NCBI GenBank assembly: GCA_037903355.1
Contig: JBAJFE010000004.1
Span: forward strand, 5,936,001-6,000,000
Reading direction: 5' to 3'
Length of the DNA stretch: 64,000 nucleotides
DNA from: Trichuris trichiura
Lineage: Eukaryota > Nematoda > Enoplea > Trichinellida > Trichuridae
Of this stretch, positions 2,139-49,099 are shown in pieces. Position numbers and translations under genes: made by a program. The notes under the pieces are model-generated. The model made no database searches. It had not been told where the DNA came from and saw nothing but the letters and a program-made list of their open reading frames with translations. Each line of letters opens with the position of its first letter. Positions within the stretch are counted from its first letter, which is position 1.

Positions 2139-3646
2139 GTAAGTCCAGTATATTGAGACTAATGCGCAGGTAATGTAAATGAGCGCGCATCAGCTGTCAG
2201 CGTAGCATATTTTAGATTGAAACAGTTCAGACTGTTGAAGATAAGATTCTAAATAATGGTTTAGCAAGACGTCAGGTGATGTGAAGGACGTGCTCTTTTA
2301 ACCGTATTAGTCATTTCACTTTAGCACTTTACGGATAACTGTTCTGCTGAAGACAACAGCATTGTAATTTACTACATTTGGTGAAAACGATTACAGTTTT
2401 CAGCTCGCAAAAATGTCTAATGAGGATTAAGAAACAGGGTTTCAGGGAATGGTGTAGTATGGGAACAAAGTATTCAAAATAATGGCCCCGCTTGCATGTA
2501 ACCATTATGTTTAAGATGTCTAAGTTTCTAGAACTTTTTATTTCTTCACACTGGTGTTAGCAAGCGATAGGAATGTAACCAGTATTTAGTACGAGATTAC
2601 TTGGCTCGAACTCTAAAACTACTGTCTGGAAAGAGGGGTCATATAGGTGCTGACTCTTTGGAAGAGAGATCAAACAAATCGAGCCGAAACCGATGCGGCT
2701 TCGGGCGCTATGATGTAAAAGATCTGTTTCCAACCGTTCCTGTGCACTATGCTTACATCATTATGCAGGAAACACTGTCCTCAAATATTTCCGTAACAAA
2801 TCGAACGGAAACTGCAGCCCTACCGTCTAGTCCAGCTGATTAGGCTGTGAATGAAGGAAGCAAAGTGCTTTGATTTGAAAGCATCGCGTTTCTCATCAAA
2901 GTGAAGCATGATCAGATTCCCACCCGAATACTAATACTTATGGCATATTTAGAAGACAAAACGCGCTCAACGAATATCTCCTACCATTATCTCAAAATTT
3001 TAAAGCCATAGGCGGACGGCGTTTCTGCCATCGTCTAGAGGGGATACGAAGGCCCCTTATTTGATCTCCTGAAAGAGCTCTTCGCTGACACGGTCGTTCA
3101 TCATTAAAAAAAGAAAAAGGATTTCTTCAAAGACATTCTTTTTATGAAAAAAGACAGTCAATTAAGAATGAGTGCATGCAGGATGCCAAAACTTACGGAA
3201 AGATATCTAGGCTTCTTTTCGACTCATCTAGTCACTGTGTAACTAGGTATCATCATTGGAATGGCAGATCGAGCAGTCAGCCTTTACAGACTTATGTACC
3301 TAAACGGAGAAATAGACTTCTTCCCTACAGCTTTGTTGAAAAATGGTTGCACGGAAAATTAACTGATACTGCACGAGAAAACGGTTGGAAAAATTGGAAA
3401 CAAGAAAGCTATTCCAAACCTTTTTTTTCTTATTCAAGAAGCACGTCCATTGTTTCAGTTTTATTGAACGGACACAACCCATTAAGTACAACATCATTTA
3501 TTGATGTTAAAGCAGCACTAATGACAGACTATTCTGGATTAGCAGAGTCCGATCATTCCATTCCCAGCAGAGTCAACTACTCAGTGGCATATGAGTTCTT
3601 CCTGACTGGCCAAAACGATGAAGGTAATGAAAGGGTGCAATTCACG
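2139..3646. other. Region before the Tigger1-like element, no assigned gene
   Basis: It contains an open frame of 166 codons on the + strand (3176-3676) whose last codons run into the terminal repeat of the element starting at 3649. The frame therefore cannot be an intact native gene, and its product is not recognised. The rest shows only short frames. Confidence 0.4.
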
Positions 3647-3648
3647 TA

Positions 3649-6106
3649 CAGGCATACCTCGCTTTATTGCGCTTAGCTATAACTGCGGTGTGCAAATTAG
3701 GACGAACTGCGTAACCGACAACCTGCTGTAGATATGATGTGAGCCTCCACGCCCATCTTTGGTAGTGTTGGACAACGCAGACTTCCTAATGAGAAAGCTT
3801 GATTTTTCAGCACCAGTTCTTCGGCTGCGTCATGTAGTGCAGTTTCTTCTGGCTATATTTGTACGATAAATGACACTGGTTGATGAGCTATCGCTGCTCA
3901 ACCGTCATAGTTTGGGTAGGTCAATCACAGAAACGAATTTCTCTATTTCTGCTTATACTTCATACCATCTTGCCCTAAAGGTCAACAGTTTGACGAAAAT
4001 AGAATAGTTGTTTTTTAGGAGTATCAGTCATTAAGGTAAGCGTAATTAGTATTCTCAACCTTCACTGATAGCGGCTCATCAATAAGTTTTTTGGTTGGTC
4101 AGCTCTTCTTCCATAAGAGTTGCTGTTTTCCGTCAACGAGAAAGATTCATTTTTTGTAGAATTCAAGGCACTCCAATTATAGTAACAATCATGGCTCGTA
4201 AGCCTTCAAGCGAAAGAGGTGCCACGCATCCCTCACTTTGAATCGTATGTTGGAAATAATCAAGCTTAGAGGGAGTGGCCGAAGGTTAGACATTTGCGCC
4301 AGACTATCAAATGGTTGAATCAAAACAAAAGTTCTGCGACGAGATGAAAAATAATACCCCGCTGAATGCATGTAAAATAAGAACGCGAAATAGCATTACT
4401 GCTCATACGGAAAGGATTCTGCTAGTATAGGTAGAAGATCAAACTAGACACAGCGTTTCTTTAACTAAAGGTCTAATTCAGAGCAAGGCAATACATCTCT
4501 TCAACTCCATCAACGTTGAAAGAGGTGAAGAAAGTGCAGAAGAAAGGTTTGAAGCCGACAGAAGTTGGTTTGTAAGACTTGAAAGAAGTAATCCGCACAA
4601 GGTAAAATTACAGAGCAAAATAAAGCTGATGTTGAAGCTAAAGCAAAGTTTGCAGAAGATTTAGCTAAGATAATTAATCAAGGTGGCTACAAGTAATAGC
4701 AGACCTTCAACGTAGACGAAACAGCAGTGTTCTGGAAGATGTCTAATAGGACTGTTCAGAGATAGATGAAACGTCAATGCCTGGCTTCGAAGGTTAAAAA
4801 GACCGGCTGTGTCTCTTCTTAGGGGCCAGCGCAACTGTAAGTTGAAACCAATGCTCATTTACTATTTTAAAAATCCTGAGCGCTTAGGAATTATGCAGCA
4901 TCTGTCGTTCCTATGGTTTAAAAATGGAGTTAGACATCCTGGATGACAGGTTACCTCTCCAAAAGTTGGTCTATTGATTATTTTAGACCTGCTGTTGACA
5001 ACTACTGTACACACAAAAAGATTCCTTTCAAAGTGTTACTGATTTTAGACAGTGCACCTTGTCACCTAAGAACTCTGGTGGATATGTACAGCGAGATTAA
5101 TGTTCGCTGCTTGCCATCTAAGACAACGTCTATTCTGCAGTTGATAGATCAAGAAGTAATCTCCATTTTTAGGTCTTACTGTTCAAGAAAAATATTCCGT
5201 AGATGAGGATTTCTCAGTAGCTCTGGACAAATTAAACTGAAAAGCTTCTGGAAAGGATTCAAAGTTCTGGACACCATTAAGAATATTCGTGATTCATGGG
5301 AGTTAAAATATCAGCATTTAAAGATGTCTGGAAGAAGTTAATTCTCATGCTTATAGGTGAATCTGAGAGGTCAGAAGGTTCAATGGAGGAAAATATTATA
5401 AACGTGGTACAAATAGGTAGAAAGTTGGAATTGCAAGTGGAGCCTGAGGATGTGGATGAGCTGCTTCAATCTAATGGTGACTTTCACAGATGAGGAATTA
5501 CTTCTTATTGGTGAAAAGAGATGATTATTTCTTGGGATGGAATCTGCGACTAAAGAAGACGCAGTGAACACTGCTGAAATGACGATTAAGACATTGCAGT
5601 GTCATATGGATTTTGTTGATAAAGAAGCAGAAAGATTCGAAAAAATGGACACTATTTTCGAACGAAGTTATACCGTGAGCAAAATGCTACCAAACAGCTC
5701 TTCATAGCAAAGAAAAATCTTTCACGAAAGGGAGAGACAGTCGATGCGGCAAGCTTCATTTTGTTCCTTTACCTAATTGAATTGTCTCAGTCATGAGTTA
5801 TGCCTTCACCAGTTTTGTCCTGGGACATTGAGCAGCCATCAGCATTGAAGCAAGAACTAATATCAGCAAAAATGTTAGGAATTACAGAAGGCTCAGGTGA
5901 TCATTAGCCTTTTTAGCGACAATGATGTTCAAAGTACTGTAGGCGCACTTTTTTGACGTGGTGTAAATTCACACTTAGCAGGCCATTAGTTAACATAGTA
6001 TGATGTGAAGGCAAGTTTTTAACGCACTGGGAAAGCAAACAATGCGCCCGATTCGGTTTACTGCAGTGCTCCAGCACCGAGTTTGCAATAAAATGATGTA
6101 TGCCTG
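3649..6106 (+). mobile_element. Full-length, decayed Tigger1-like (pogo superfamily) DNA transposon
   Basis: The element is 2458 bp and flanked by TA on both sides (3647-3648 and 6107-6108), the target duplication expected of the Tc1/mariner/pogo group. The left end reads CAGGCATACCTCGCTTTATT and the right end, in reverse complement, reads CAGGCATACATCATTTTATT. From memory these closely match the terminal repeats of mammalian Tigger1, and the length is near the roughly 2.4 kb of that family. Between the ends, on the + strand, lie frame-broken pieces of a Tigger transposase in the right order. The many stops and shifts show it is inactive and old. Relationship to mammalian copies is recalled, not searched. 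Confidence 0.9.
4690..5790 (+). pseudogene. Broken Tigger-type DDE transposase
   Basis: Fragments in several frames follow the order of a pogo/Tigger transposase: a catalytic-domain start with the NVDET motif (first Asp codon 4715-4717), a segment with LILDSAPCH (second Asp 5048-5050), and LQLIDQEVI (third Asp 5147-5149). The last two aspartates are separated by 32 residues, the DD32D spacing of Tigger elements. The C-terminal region follows (FWKGF, NIRDSWE, then a VEPEDVDELLQ stretch). All three catalytic residues can still be read, but frameshifts and stops separate the pieces. The N-terminal DNA-binding region (about 4190-4690) is too decayed to follow. Confidence 0.88.
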
Positions 6107-6632
6107 TAAGTTAATTTTTAAAAGAGGAAGCTAGAAGAAGAACACAGTACAAAAAATGGGTTTTGCCATAGCACCCTGGCGAAGGAAAGGTAATTTCAGA
6201 AATCTCCAGGAATCTAGACTTTGTCGACTTTCTCAAGAATCCACTGAATCTACTATCAACTCTTCCATCAGACAGAGTCAATACCTGCGCAGAAACCAAA
6301 TCAGAAGTAATCTAAAACGTAAAATGTAGCTGAGGAACCAGCTGCATTAGGAAGACAAGGTACATAGTGTCAATCAGGTTCCAACAACGCGAAATGTCAT
6401 CTGAATAATACAGGAAAGGCGAAATGTCTCACTGGAAAAGTTGTAGCACCAAAGGAGCAAACTGCAAGCTACAGGAGCCAGCCAAGATAATCGAAGAGCC
6501 ATTAAATGTCTCAGCAGCTGTAGGGCATATGACACCACATCTCTACCCAGATGAAAAAGTCACCAGCTCACGACTGATCCATGAAATCCATTAACCTAAT
6601 TCCAGCTTCAGGAAGGTCAGAAAAGCTATGTA
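6107..6632. other. Spacer between two DNA transposons
   Basis: AT-rich sequence with short frames only. No gene or repeat was recognised. Confidence 0.5.
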
Positions 6633-8969: not shown

Positions 8970-9720
8970 TTTGGCATCAAAAATAAGAAATAAAGCATCA
9001 CCAAGTTTCCTATGCACTTGGCTGAGGAAGATTGGAATCCTGACCACAAGTATACGCAGAAATTTCTGAATGAAAAAATTAAGCCAGCTTTTTATGTGCA
9101 GTTGATGCAGCAACGCTCAACCGAAGACTTGCTACCTGGTATCTCGCTAAATGGAAAAGCGCCAGACTTTAATTCATAGCTAAACGAAGTTAACTATTTC
9201 ATAGCTAACTGTTGCTGCCCTGGAAAGTTTACGGGCGACAATATTCGAGAACATGTAATTCAAAGGGAGAGATTTTTAGCAAATGGAACTTCTGTCAGTT
9301 AATTCGAAGAAACGAGATGAGATTTAGGTAAGAACAAATATAACTACGATTTCAGTTATAATGCATATAGAAGTGGACTCAACTGGAAAACTCTGCTGAG
9401 AAAAATCATTAGGATCTCATAGGGAGAAATGTGCACTAAGTTGCAATTAGACTTCAGAATCTGTAAGTCTTGTAGCTTCTGCAACTTCTTCTACTAGACG
9501 TCTTATTGTAGGGGTATTATTGACTGGTAACGTTCTCTCGCACGTATCTGTTGGATGTCTCAACAGAATTGATGAACTTGTGACCGTGAAGTTCCTCCCG
9601 CCTAATATTACTTCCCTAATGCAGTCGGTAGGTCAAGGTGTAACCGAAAATCTGAAACGCCCATATCAAAAGTTACTGTTTAGATATCTCCTATTATCAG
9701 AAAGTAACATAATTTAAAAT
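8970..9720 (+). pseudogene. Jerky/Tigger-type transposase relic
   Basis: Two pieces of a pogo-superfamily (jerky-like) transposase are visible. Around 9340-9430 a stretch reads DFSYNAYRSGLNWKTL, corresponding to the YNADETGLNWK motif at the start of the DDE domain; the acidic pair is replaced, so the first catalytic Asp is lost. Around 9580-9717 a frame reads VKFLPPNITSLMQSVGQGV, the region around the third catalytic residue. The middle of the domain is missing, which indicates an internal deletion. Terminal repeats were not found, so the borders are approximate. Confidence 0.7.
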
Positions 9721-45863: not shown

Positions 45864-47173
45864 CAGGTAGTTCTCATGCAACGCGTTCTTCGCTCATATG
45901 CAATTTTGAAATTATAGCACTTCCTCGCATAACGCGATTCTGATTCTGCTCATACGCGAATTTTACCGGCTGGAAACCATGGGCGTATTGCGAAGTCTTC
46001 CTGTGTTTTCGTCTACCGAAACTAAACACAAACCTCGCTCAAACCTCGACCTTATGTACGTTCTTCCGTGACGTGCAAACGAAGCACTGATTCTACTGTG
46101 AAAAAAGTGCTTACGGTTAATTTCAGAAGCTGTATCCTCAGAATGGCCATTAACAACGTTACAGAAGCCTGGAGTTACGTATCAAAACAATGCCTGCGTC
46201 GTGTTTTGCGGAGACGCATCCCAGATTTGATCTGCGATTTCAAAGACACAGTCTTAAGCGAAATTGCTGAAGGCTGCGTTTAGTTAGCAAACAGACCAGG
46301 CTTTGAAAAAATAAAATATTAGGACATTAAACACATTTTGAAATATCAACCGGATGGGCTAACCACCGATGAACTGCAGGAGAATGAGAAGGAAGAAAAG
46401 AAGCAAATGATGAAAACCAGAAAGTTCCTCCGCGGCAACTGACTAGCACTGAACTATCAGATGCTTTGGAAACTATTGAGCACCGGTTACGATGGCCCGA
46501 AAACAATGACTGTAATGCGGTACAAATGAGGATAGCCATAAAAGATATCCGAGTTAGCCTGTAGCCATATGATGCTGTAAGAGAGAAGACCATGCGCGAA
46601 ACAAAAAAGCCTTGAATTCTAGTATACCGCGCTGATGAAACATTGTCAGGGCAGCGGAAAGATGCCTCCTACTTTTAATAAGAACTCAGTTCGCTCATGA
46701 CTATAGATAGTGAGGTGAAAAAGTGAGCCCAATGGACCAGCGTTCTTTTCTAAAAATGAGATAATTTTAGAACTGAGAGGACCTCTTTCCATAGGCTAAA
46801 AACGAAAGCATGCCTCTCCTGAAAGTCGTTTTGAACTTTATCCGCCATAAAGAGTTGTATCATAAAAGTTGCCCAGTTAATACACGATTGCCACACAAGG
46901 AAAAAACATGTTATTCAGACCCTGTGTAAGACGATCCATATCTTCGCGTGCATAGCGGTTGAATAACTGCTCAGACGCAGAATAATTCCTTTCTCAACGT
47001 AGTTTATTGACGATATTTCTCATTGTTGTTCACAAGCAAAAAATCTTTTTGACGTTTTAAATCAAATCGTAATTTTTCTAAGGTTCGTGTCTCCTATAAA
47101 GCGACTCCGTATAACGCGAAATTTTCGACGATTTTCAAGTGACCATATTCTCGCGTTATACGAGAGCTACCTA
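45864..47173 (+). mobile_element. Third Tigger-family element, about 1.3 kb, internally deleted
   Basis: The left end CAGGTAGTTCTCATGCAACG and the right end in reverse complement (TAGGTAGCTCTCGTATAACG) form a terminal inverted repeat. The left end follows a TA; the right flank is CA, a decayed TA. A transposase tail lies inside on the + strand, and the catalytic domain is absent. Confidence 0.75.
46068..46615 (+). pseudogene. C-terminal part of a Tigger/jerky transposase
   Basis: INNVTEAWSYVSKQCLRRVL matches the region after the DDE domain where Tigger/jerky proteins read EAW and then a Trp-Arg-Lys segment. The acidic tail continues in another frame at about 46420-46615 (TSTELSDALETIEHRLRW). 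A stop at 46280-46282 and a frameshift separate the pieces. Confidence 0.65.
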
Positions 47174-48906
47174 TGTGCCATTTGCTATATCTTTTGAACA
47201 AACTCGCGGTAAATCTTGAGTCAGCAATACTTTCTCGCTGTCTATGGATGCCTCTGCTATTACCTGGGATAGGAAACTCTCCCTTGGTCCAACGTCTTTT
47301 TCTGATAACAGCTTTTGTGAAATTGCAGTTCCTTTGAATTACCTAGAATTTTGCTATCCTTATCATAAGGAAGAGCATTAATGTTATTCTATTGGGAAGA
47401 GGGATGTCGACACTAACTCCTGTAAGAGGTTCCAACTTTCTGTCATGGGATCACTAAGGAAAGAATCTTCTAGGTAATAGCTGATTAAGATTTCGTTAAG
47501 AAGAATGTCAAAATTTTTGACTTCATCACGGAATGCTCTACTACTTTTAACTGTAGAACTCTGTTTTCCTATTAACGGGGATTCTTTTTAAGTAGGAACT
47601 GATTTTAAAGATATTGTTATTTACTGTTGAAACCACTGATCTCATCAGTGTCATGTGTTATACATTATTGGTGAATCGTACACCTGCGGCCATTTACACT
47701 CTGAAGGAAATTTTAAGTATTCAATGATCCATGATAGTAAAATTTGCAAGCTAGAAAGAAACGTTTTTTAGGTCTTTCAGGTTCTCGATAGGGTCCCTCG
47801 GAATAGGTCTGTAGACACCGCTACCAAAGACCGCACGCATTTTTTCAACACAGACAGAACTACAAAATCAGTACTCAAACCTTTTTATTTCTGTGCTCAG
47901 CAAAGGCATCAGGTCGAGTAGCTCTGCAACGTCACGCAAGAGATCACAGGCAGTAAAGAAGCCCTACTTAAGTGCACCACGAAAACTTTCAGATGCTTTA
48001 AGAAGCACTATATATACAGTTGTAGCTAGTTTTTGAGCATTTTATGTAAGGAAAACTGCTTCACATAGTTTAGTTTTTCTTTCCTACTCTCTTCTACCTC
48101 CCTATAACCACTTCCACTACTTCGGTCGATATTGTGATGAACAGCAGCGGAAAGAACCGCGGCTGCCGTTTTCAGTTCAGAAAGCTATAGTATGTCAGAT
48201 TTTGTTTTAAAAATCAAAAGAACTTTATTTTATGAAACAACCGAAGCCTGTTAAAAGACACCCGGTCTTTTGAAATCAAAAGAATTAAAAAAAACTTAAT
48301 AAGTTCAGCGGAAGAGTCATGTACGCTTACCCATTCTTCAACAATCCTTTATTCATCCTTCATGCAAGGTCTTTAACGGCTGAGTTAGTTAGGTGCTGCG
48401 CGAGAGGAAGGAGTGCATTTGCGCATTGGTTTTCCTTTGACTTTCCAAACGCTGAATTGGCTATGCTTTTGGCAGAAAATGTCCGTAAGTTATGTTGTTC
48501 AGTCTTTGGCGCGTGCCTCCACTGAATTCTCAGTATTGGCAATCAAGTACACCATTTCTCCCATACTGAATTCTTTTAGGAATTTTTACACAGGTTTTCC
48601 AGGATTCACCGCATTCAGTAGGCGCGCCATTAAGGTGGTCTGATACCTCGACTTGAAAACCGTAATAATTTTTTGTCCATCGCCTGAATCAGCGACATGC
48701 AGTTAGGTAAGAAATAAATAGCGAAAACGTATTTTATACCAACAGTTTTGTCTTTGATCATACGCAGCAGCTGCTTAGACTAAGAAATATCCTGCAGTCG
48801 CGGTCCACGTCCGCAGAGATATTGTGGGCACTTGCGTCAGGAAAAATGCTCTTTCAAACGAAGCGAATGTCATTCACCCTTTTCCGTTGATTCGATAAAC
48901 CATTAG
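47174..48906. other. No confident gene; possible upstream exons of the + strand gene ending at 49099
   Basis: Coding-like stretches occur at about 48365-48480 (reading TAELVRCCARGRSAF and FPNAELAMLLAEN) and at about 48797-48866, next to splice-like sites. I could not join them in phase. The rest of the stretch shows nothing recognisable. Confidence 0.35.
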
Positions 48907-49099
48907 AAGGCGTGTTACACTTCTGCAGCTCTTTGAATGTGAGCATTTTCCGATAACTAATAATTTACATTTGTAGTCACCGGCAGCGTTAGAACACCAT
49001 AATCTAGTAGCAAGAGCTGTCGATGCTTTACAACACTTGCCTGATTCTGCATCCTCAGCCCTCAGAATCTTTTTAGAATACTTCGCTAAAACAAGCTAG
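48907..49099 (+). CDS. Candidate last two exons of an unidentified gene
   Basis: Exon 48907-48938 (after CCATTAG, ending at GTGAGC) and exon 48977-49099 (after ATTTGTAG, ending in TAG) join in phase. They encode a helix-rich C-terminus (LEHHNLVARAVDALQHLPDS and ALRIFLEYFAKTS). It resembles helical-repeat proteins in general, but no family is recognised. The intron of 38 nt is shorter than most here, which lowers confidence. The stop lies only 5 bases from the stop of the - strand candidate at 49105. Confidence 0.35.

What the first reader, a model, noticed from the sequence alone, without database searches (positions are those of the whole stretch)
3649..6106. Full-length Tigger1-like element with ends close to those of mammalian Tigger1
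Both terminal repeats, the TA target, the length (2458 bp) and the DD32D transposase fragments fit Tigger1, a family best known from mammalian genomes. In an ecdysozoan, possibly a parasite, genome this suggests either a broadly distributed old lineage or transfer between host and parasite. The match to mammalian consensus sequences is from memory.
Basis: partly seen in the sequence, partly recalled or inferred. Interest (0 to 1): 0.75.

Follow-up and report, generated by a model that had tools for sequence, protein, structure and literature searches.

The report
Dead Tigger1-type transposon in a whipworm
A decayed "jumping gene" in a whipworm genome belongs to the same lineage as Tigger1 of mammals, so the element most likely crossed between very distant animals by horizontal transfer, possibly but not provably between host and parasite.

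Summary
Window 3649-6106 is a full-length, dead pogo/Tigger DNA transposon: TA on each side, 23-bp inverted ends, a DD32D transposase broken by stops and frameshifts. The genome (72.7 Mb) is a Trichuris whipworm; its COX1 is 100% identical to a T. trichiura record. The family has at least 23 places there, 64-77% identical to the window copy: a star-like set of old, almost neutrally decaying copies. The transposase groups with Tigger1 of amniotes; joining it to frog, crayfish and snail relatives is rejected (dlnL 140). Vertical descent cannot explain that; horizontal transfer can. The worm family is a sister family, not a copy of mammalian Tigger1: the protein is 74-76% identical and the 5' region differs beyond about 38 bp. 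Direction, and direct host-parasite transfer, are undecided. One library search found no relevant paper naming Trichuris with Tigger.

The parts
3647..3648 (.). TA target site, left copy
   Evidence: sequence
3649..3671 (+). 5' terminal inverted repeat, CAGGCATACCTCGCTTTATTGCG, 22/23 to the recalled mammalian Tigger1 end
3649..4190 (+). 5' untranslated region (542 bp); shared with other worm copies, but matching the recalled Tigger1 5' end only over about the first 38 bp (10.8 bits)
4191..5907 (+). remains of the transposase gene (ATG at 4191, stop TAG at 5905, placed by eye), broken by stops and frameshifts; best matches T. suis P0081 and amniote TIGD1/Tigger1
4431..4664 (+). open piece with the Tc5-type HTH part of the DNA-binding region (PF03221, E 0.017, below the Pfam cut-off)
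4934..5206 (+). open piece of the DDE_1 catalytic domain (E 1.7e-13); second and third D at 5048-5050 and 5147-5149; first D at 4715-4717 lies upstream of it
   Evidence: codons read
5908..6106 (+). 3' untranslated region, homologous along its length to the recalled Tigger1 3' end
6084..6106 (-). 3' terminal inverted repeat (reverse complement CAGGCATACATCATTTTATTGCA)
6107..6108 (.). TA target site, right copy
   Evidence: sequence

Best explanation
The element is a dead full-length copy of a whipworm family of pogo/Tigger cut-and-paste transposons in the Tigger1 clade. An active ancestor entered the Trichuris lineage by horizontal transfer from the pool that also gave amniote Tigger1 (inferred). 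It spread by TA-targeted cut-and-paste: the ends, the TA and the catalytic triad are shown, the activity is inferred. It spread in one old burst (star-like tree, shown), before or near the T. trichiura-T. suis split (inferred). The copies in this genome then decayed almost neutrally (codon-position test, shown). The copy in the window does nothing now.
For: Structure. Family: 35 matches, 23 places by my grouping, a lower bound. Host: COX1 100% to a Trichuris record. Transposase: searched with T. suis P0081, the best hits after T. suis itself are gharial 76% and mammalian TIGD1 proteins; Bombina 66%, Cherax 64%. ML tree: worm copies plus three T. suis proteins 100%; the sister position to amniote Tigger1 rests on nodes of 75-85%. 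Alternatives rejected: worm with Bombina/Cherax/Bradybaena dlnL 140, all invertebrates together dlnL 124. Non-coding 3' end: profile match 122 bits, E 2e-39, best of 1000 base-shuffled sequences 3.6 bits; worm-worm 63.4%, worm-Tigger1 65.8%, majority base equals Tigger1 at 149/190 columns. Decay: mismatches at codon positions 0.447/0.419/0.480 over 105 pairs.
Against: At the protein level the T. suis copy (74-76% to Tigger1) is about as close as the conserved host protein RPL3 is between worm and mammal (245/328, 74.7%), so the protein alone does not prove transfer. The nodes that put worm and amniotes together against lgn57 and the rest have 83-85% support. The 5' region does not match the recalled Tigger1 5' end beyond about 38 bp. 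TA is not clean at all ends of other copies: 3 of 5 readable 5' ends are preceded by TG.
Confidence: 0.82

Rival explanations
1. A sub-case of the best explanation: direct transfer between a placental mammal and a whipworm living in it (either direction), at about the time Tigger1 was active in mammals.
For: Trichuris species parasitise mammals (established knowledge); the closest relatives of the worm family found are amniote, mostly placental, Tigger1; Tigger1 expanded in placentals between about 190 and 100 MYA (PMC3517439, passages); worm copies are about 0.2-0.4 substitutions per site from their root.
Against: The worm family is sister to, not nested within, amniote Tigger1, with about 0.19 aa substitutions per site between the two; relatives in kiwi, gharial, snake, frog and crayfish allow intermediaries.
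Confidence: 0.22
2. Vertical inheritance of a very old Tigger1 lineage from a common ancestor of nematodes and vertebrates.
For: Tigger-type elements are widespread in animals (PMC9219625, abstract, section 3.3 and passages); protein identity alone is about that of RPL3.
Against: About 78% agreement of non-coding 3' ends (149/190) over more than 500 My; the distance to Tigger1 (0.21) is no larger than the decay of most single worm copies since their burst (0.18-0.39); invertebrate Tigger1-like proteins do not group together (dlnL 124).
Confidence: 0.06
3. Contamination of the assembly by vertebrate DNA.
For: None; considered because the DNA resembles a mammalian repeat.
Against: 23 places on 9 numbered contigs, diverged from the window copy and decayed wherever read, unique flanks of the window copy, and T. 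suis proteins of the same family on contigs of 196-444 kb.
Confidence: 0.01
4. An ordinary nematode pogo family whose ends resemble Tigger1 by chance.
For: The genome is rich in pogo transposases (751 DDE_1 candidates, 150 scored).
Against: Proteins of 36 other pogo loci of this genome gave listed matches of about 24-43% to the copies, apart from one stretch at 72-78% at an edge of L048 that lies outside the Tigger1-type copy; the young abundant family shows another end; the Tigger1 grouping holds in the tree.
Confidence: 0.01

Closest known systems
TIGGER1 / TIGD1 of placental mammals (also gharial and kiwi proteins)
   Same: TA target, CAGGCATACCTCG end (recalled), DD32D, same domains, homologous 3' non-coding end (recalled), T. 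suis transposase 74-76% identical
   Different: worm family forms its own 100% clade; 5' region differs beyond 38 bp; length 2458 against 2408-2419 bp in four mammals (PMC3517439 passages)
Trichuris suis proteins P0081, P0241, P0247 (hypothetical proteins M514_25343, M514_24498, M514_20879)
   Same: same family as the window element (100% clade), with open frames of 456, 372 and 335 aa
   Different: far less decayed than any copy read here (tree branches); P0081 lacks the CENP-B_N domain, P0241 is annotated as partial and P0247 is short, so none is a complete transposase as annotated
Trichuris suis P0063 (family Q)
   Same: Tigger1 clade, 71.7% to gharial Tigger1
   Different: only 65% to P0081; one decayed place seen in this genome, C1:6999919-7001434
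Tigger1-like proteins of Bombina (P0060) and Cherax (P0066)
   Same: outward relatives, 72-74% to gharial
   Different: 64-66% to the worm P0081; grouping the worm family with them is rejected

Membership tests
pogo/Tigger DNA transposons | TA target duplication and short inverted ends | tested here: met
   window copy: TA both sides, 23-bp ends. Over copies, window included: 5 of 5 readable 3' ends followed by TA; of 5 readable 5' ends 2 preceded by TA and 3 by TG
pogo/Tigger DNA transposons | CENP-B_N/HTH plus DDE_1 domains with DDxD spacing about 29-36 | tested here: met
   DDE_1 and DD32D in the window (sequence); HTH_Tnp_Tc5 only E 0.017 in the broken window copy, CENP-B_N not tested there; both present in P0063 and P0001
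Tigger1 clade | transposase groups with Tigger1/TIGD1 rather than other pogo clades | tested here: met
   node support 75-85%, two alternatives rejected by dlnL 124-140
Tigger1 (Repbase family, strict 80-80-80 sense) | at least 80% nucleotide identity over 80% of the length | tested here: not met
   window copy 65-69% to the recalled 3' end, majority base 149/190, no match in the 5' region beyond 38 bp; reference ends recalled, coding DNA not compared
Horizontally transferred element | more similar than host genes | tested here: inconclusive
   protein about equal to RPL3 (74-76% against 74.7%); non-coding ends far more similar than vertical descent allows; no mammalian DNA held for dS
Horizontally transferred element | tree at odds with the host tree | tested here: met
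   nematode family next to amniotes, with a frog among the outgroups together with crayfish and snail
Horizontally transferred element | patchy distribution among nematodes | not testable with these tools
   no other nematode genomes held; among the 120 proteins listed per search, the only nematode named is T. suis, and unnamed proteins are present

The most novel reading that the evidence does not exclude
Whipworm-like parasites were donors, or close relays, of mammalian Tigger1: the worms carry two lineages (P and Q) that may branch outside the single shallow amniote radiation. A tree with Q outside P plus amniotes is not rejected (dlnL 2.5, AU p 0.34).
Probability: 0.13. Interest if true: 0.88.

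Novelty: new member of a known kind. Interest (0 to 1): 0.6.

Why it matters
Tigger1 is a well-known DNA transposon of placental mammals and I know of no established source for it. A sister family fossilised in a parasite of mammals makes the origin testable: sequenced Trichuris, Trichinella and Capillaria genomes can show when it entered the worms and whether it came before or after the mammalian burst. A 2022 survey of Tigger found interphylum transfer only between placental mammals and arthropods (PMC9219625, section 3.3).

Tried and rejected
Looked for a real mammalian Tigger1 DNA stretch to replace the recalled one: a 33-mer in viral contigs, a 23-mer in genome contigs, and end strings in papers gave nothing or four unrelated papers in a listing. 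To see whether the recall was coloured by having read the window first, I compared the 38 columns where the window differs from the majority of the 12 other copies in the 3' alignment: recall equals the majority in 26, the window in 7, neither in 5. Its coding end also reads AEGSDDG*, as in P0002 and P0047 (by eye).

RPL3 as a host yardstick came out equal to the transposase, so it was not counted as support; its exons were picked by eye, which favours conserved stretches. COX1 was compared with the PDB through the record P0121 but not used. Both flanks are unique, so no empty-site copy could be shown. The 5' region was tested with a profile of 14 copies and matched the recalled 5' end over about 38 bp only (10.8 bits, best shuffle 2.1). 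Ribosomal L4 was too fragmentary to use. The scan for ends of other pogo families was rough: of 11 loci, 4 showed the true end, 5 gave inner or unrelated inverted repeats, 2 none.

Rows dropped: 6 of 21 copies with under 230 residues were left out of the tree; 13 of the remaining 15 copies plus one other worm family were left out of the topology tests; the 3' alignment used 13 copies, with L045 and L047, which also had matches, left out. Two of the 23 places (on C7 and C13) were never fetched. The topology test used 5000 resamplings; the program advises 10000 for AU.

Full report
What is there. Positions 3649-6106 hold a 2458-bp element between two TA dinucleotides, with inverted ends of 23 bp. 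The first 23 bases differ at one place from the sequence that I recall as the end of mammalian Tigger1; the same 23-mer with up to three mismatches is found 12 times in the 72.7-Mb genome and its reversed control never. A transposase frame runs from ATG 4191 to TAG 5905-5907 (placed by eye) but is broken. Its open pieces carry DDE_1 (E 1.7e-13) and a weak HTH_Tnp_Tc5 (E 0.017), and the three catalytic D codons at 4715, 5048 and 5147 give DD32D (read). A single-frame match to a relative contains 15 stops. Flanks of 500 bp on either side are single-copy at the sensitivity of that search.

Whose genome. COX1 on contig C59 is 100% identical to the representative of a cluster labelled Trichuris (A0A2H4PUT3_TRITR, T. 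trichiura); T. muris is 85% and Trichinella 76%. The cluster pools sequences of 90% identity, so the genome is a whipworm at or near T. trichiura; the exact species is not settled.

The family. A DNA search of the own genome gave 35 matches, which I group into 23 places, at 64-77% identity to the window copy; the tool calls such counts lower bounds. I read 20 of the other 22. Fifteen copies, the window's included, keep enough transposase for a tree; it is star-like, with short inner branches and long tips. Mismatches at the three codon positions are 0.447, 0.419 and 0.480 over 105 pairs, close to what decay without selection gives; misread frameshifts inflate all three. I saw no intact copy; the best-preserved, on C11 (L041), is 69.7% to T. 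suis P0081 and 61.7% to gharial Tigger1 by pieces. Counting the window copy, five 3' ends still end in CCTG and all five are followed by TA; of five 5' ends that still begin with CAGG, two are preceded by TA and three by TG, which I read as decay of the TA.

Relationship to Tigger1. A published study reports more than twenty kiwi insertions at 97% or more to a bat Tigger1 but could not rule out contamination (PMC4971623, passages). Searching with the worm protein P0081, the best matches after T. suis are gharial 76% and mammalian TIGD1 proteins, most of them 70-77%; Bombina is 66%, Cherax 64% (the best 120 of 741 listed). In the ML tree the worm copies and three T. suis proteins form a 100% clade, joined by T. 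suis P0063 (75%), sister to amniote Tigger1; the neighbouring nodes have 83-85%, while the order inside the amniotes is unresolved. Placing the worm family with Bombina, Cherax and Bradybaena costs 140 lnL units, and putting all invertebrates together 124; leaving P0063 outside costs only 2.5. Proteins of 36 other pogo loci of this genome gave listed matches of about 24-43% to the copies, with one stretch at 72-78% beside, not in, a copy (lists cut at 60 and 40 rows), and the abundant young pogo family shows a different end.

Non-coding evidence. A profile of 13 worm 3' ends matches the recalled Tigger1 3' end over 253 bp at 122 bits (E 2e-39; the first 40 or so bases are coding); the best of 1000 base-shuffled sequences scored 3.6 bits. 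After the stop codon, worm copies are 63.4% identical to each other and 65.8% to Tigger1, and the majority base of the worm copies equals Tigger1 at 149 of the 190 columns with enough letters. In the K2P tree the Tigger1 branch (0.21) is no longer than most worm tips (0.18-0.39). An untranslated end cannot stay this similar for the more than 500 million years since nematodes and vertebrates parted (established knowledge), which is the core argument for horizontal transfer. On the 5' side only about 38 bp match, so one lineage has a different 5' region or my recall of it is poor.

Limits. The mammalian DNA ends are recalled, not fetched. Three things speak for them: the match itself, the coding end that agrees with kiwi and muntjac proteins (by eye), and the test that the recall follows the other copies' majority rather than the window (26 against 7 of 38 columns). 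Protein identity alone does not prove transfer, since RPL3 is 74.7% between worm and mammal. Timing is rough: 0.2-0.3 substitutions per site, at C. elegans-like mutation rates recalled as 2-3e-9 per generation and one to three generations a year (the range used in PMC4724142, passages), gives some tens of millions to about 150 million years. This overlaps the 190-100 MYA window for the mammalian expansion (PMC3517439, passages) without proving that they coincide.

What is known. Tigger is reported from many animals, including two nematode species of one order that the parts I saw do not name (PMC9219625: abstract, section 3.3 and passages; its supplements could not be read, so those two might be whipworms). 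Its only interphylum transfers were between placental mammals and arthropods. Tigger elements are polyphyletic, with Tigger1 and Tigger2 far apart (PMC7325037, passages). Transfers of other elements between nematodes and mammals have been proposed, such as RTE1_Sar and bandit (PMC6542046, passages). A search for Trichuris with Tigger gave one unrelated paper (listing); Tigger1 with nematode gave three, the two surveys above and a tool paper (listing).

Verdict. The element is a dead copy of a whipworm sister family of Tigger1, most likely acquired by horizontal transfer. Direct exchange between host and parasite is attractive and open.

Noticed in passing
own genome, L009-L038: A young, high-copy pogo family (about 2.4 kb, the longest pairwise matches mostly 96-98% identical with one at 90%, many open frames of 528-537 aa, end CAGTAGAACCTCC where seen) suggests recent or current transposition in this whipworm.
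   Followed up: partly
L081 and L082 (C61:135972, C35:277366): Two similar copies (94.5% over 2.7 kb) of another Tigger-type family with open frames of 590 and 599 aa; more matches of that kind across the genome.
   Followed up: partly
G000:C1:6999919-7001434: A decayed copy of the second Tigger1-clade family, related to T. suis P0063 (77% and 61% aa in two pieces).
   Followed up: partly
window 9514-9699, 46083-46376 and 48817-49059: Further weak pogo-transposase remnants; DDE_1 passes the Pfam cut-off around the first and the third, the second was not tested.
   Followed up: partly
G000:C28:999478-999825: A COX1 fragment with stops on a 1.3-Mb contig, probably a nuclear copy of mitochondrial DNA.
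   Followed up: no
P0057 (lgn contig of 2157 bp): A Tigger1-like protein of unnamed origin that branches next to the worm-plus-amniote group; naming its host would help to root the transfer.
   Followed up: no
window 3089-3676: A 195-aa stop-to-stop frame that runs into the element's left end and has no Pfam match.
   Followed up: partly
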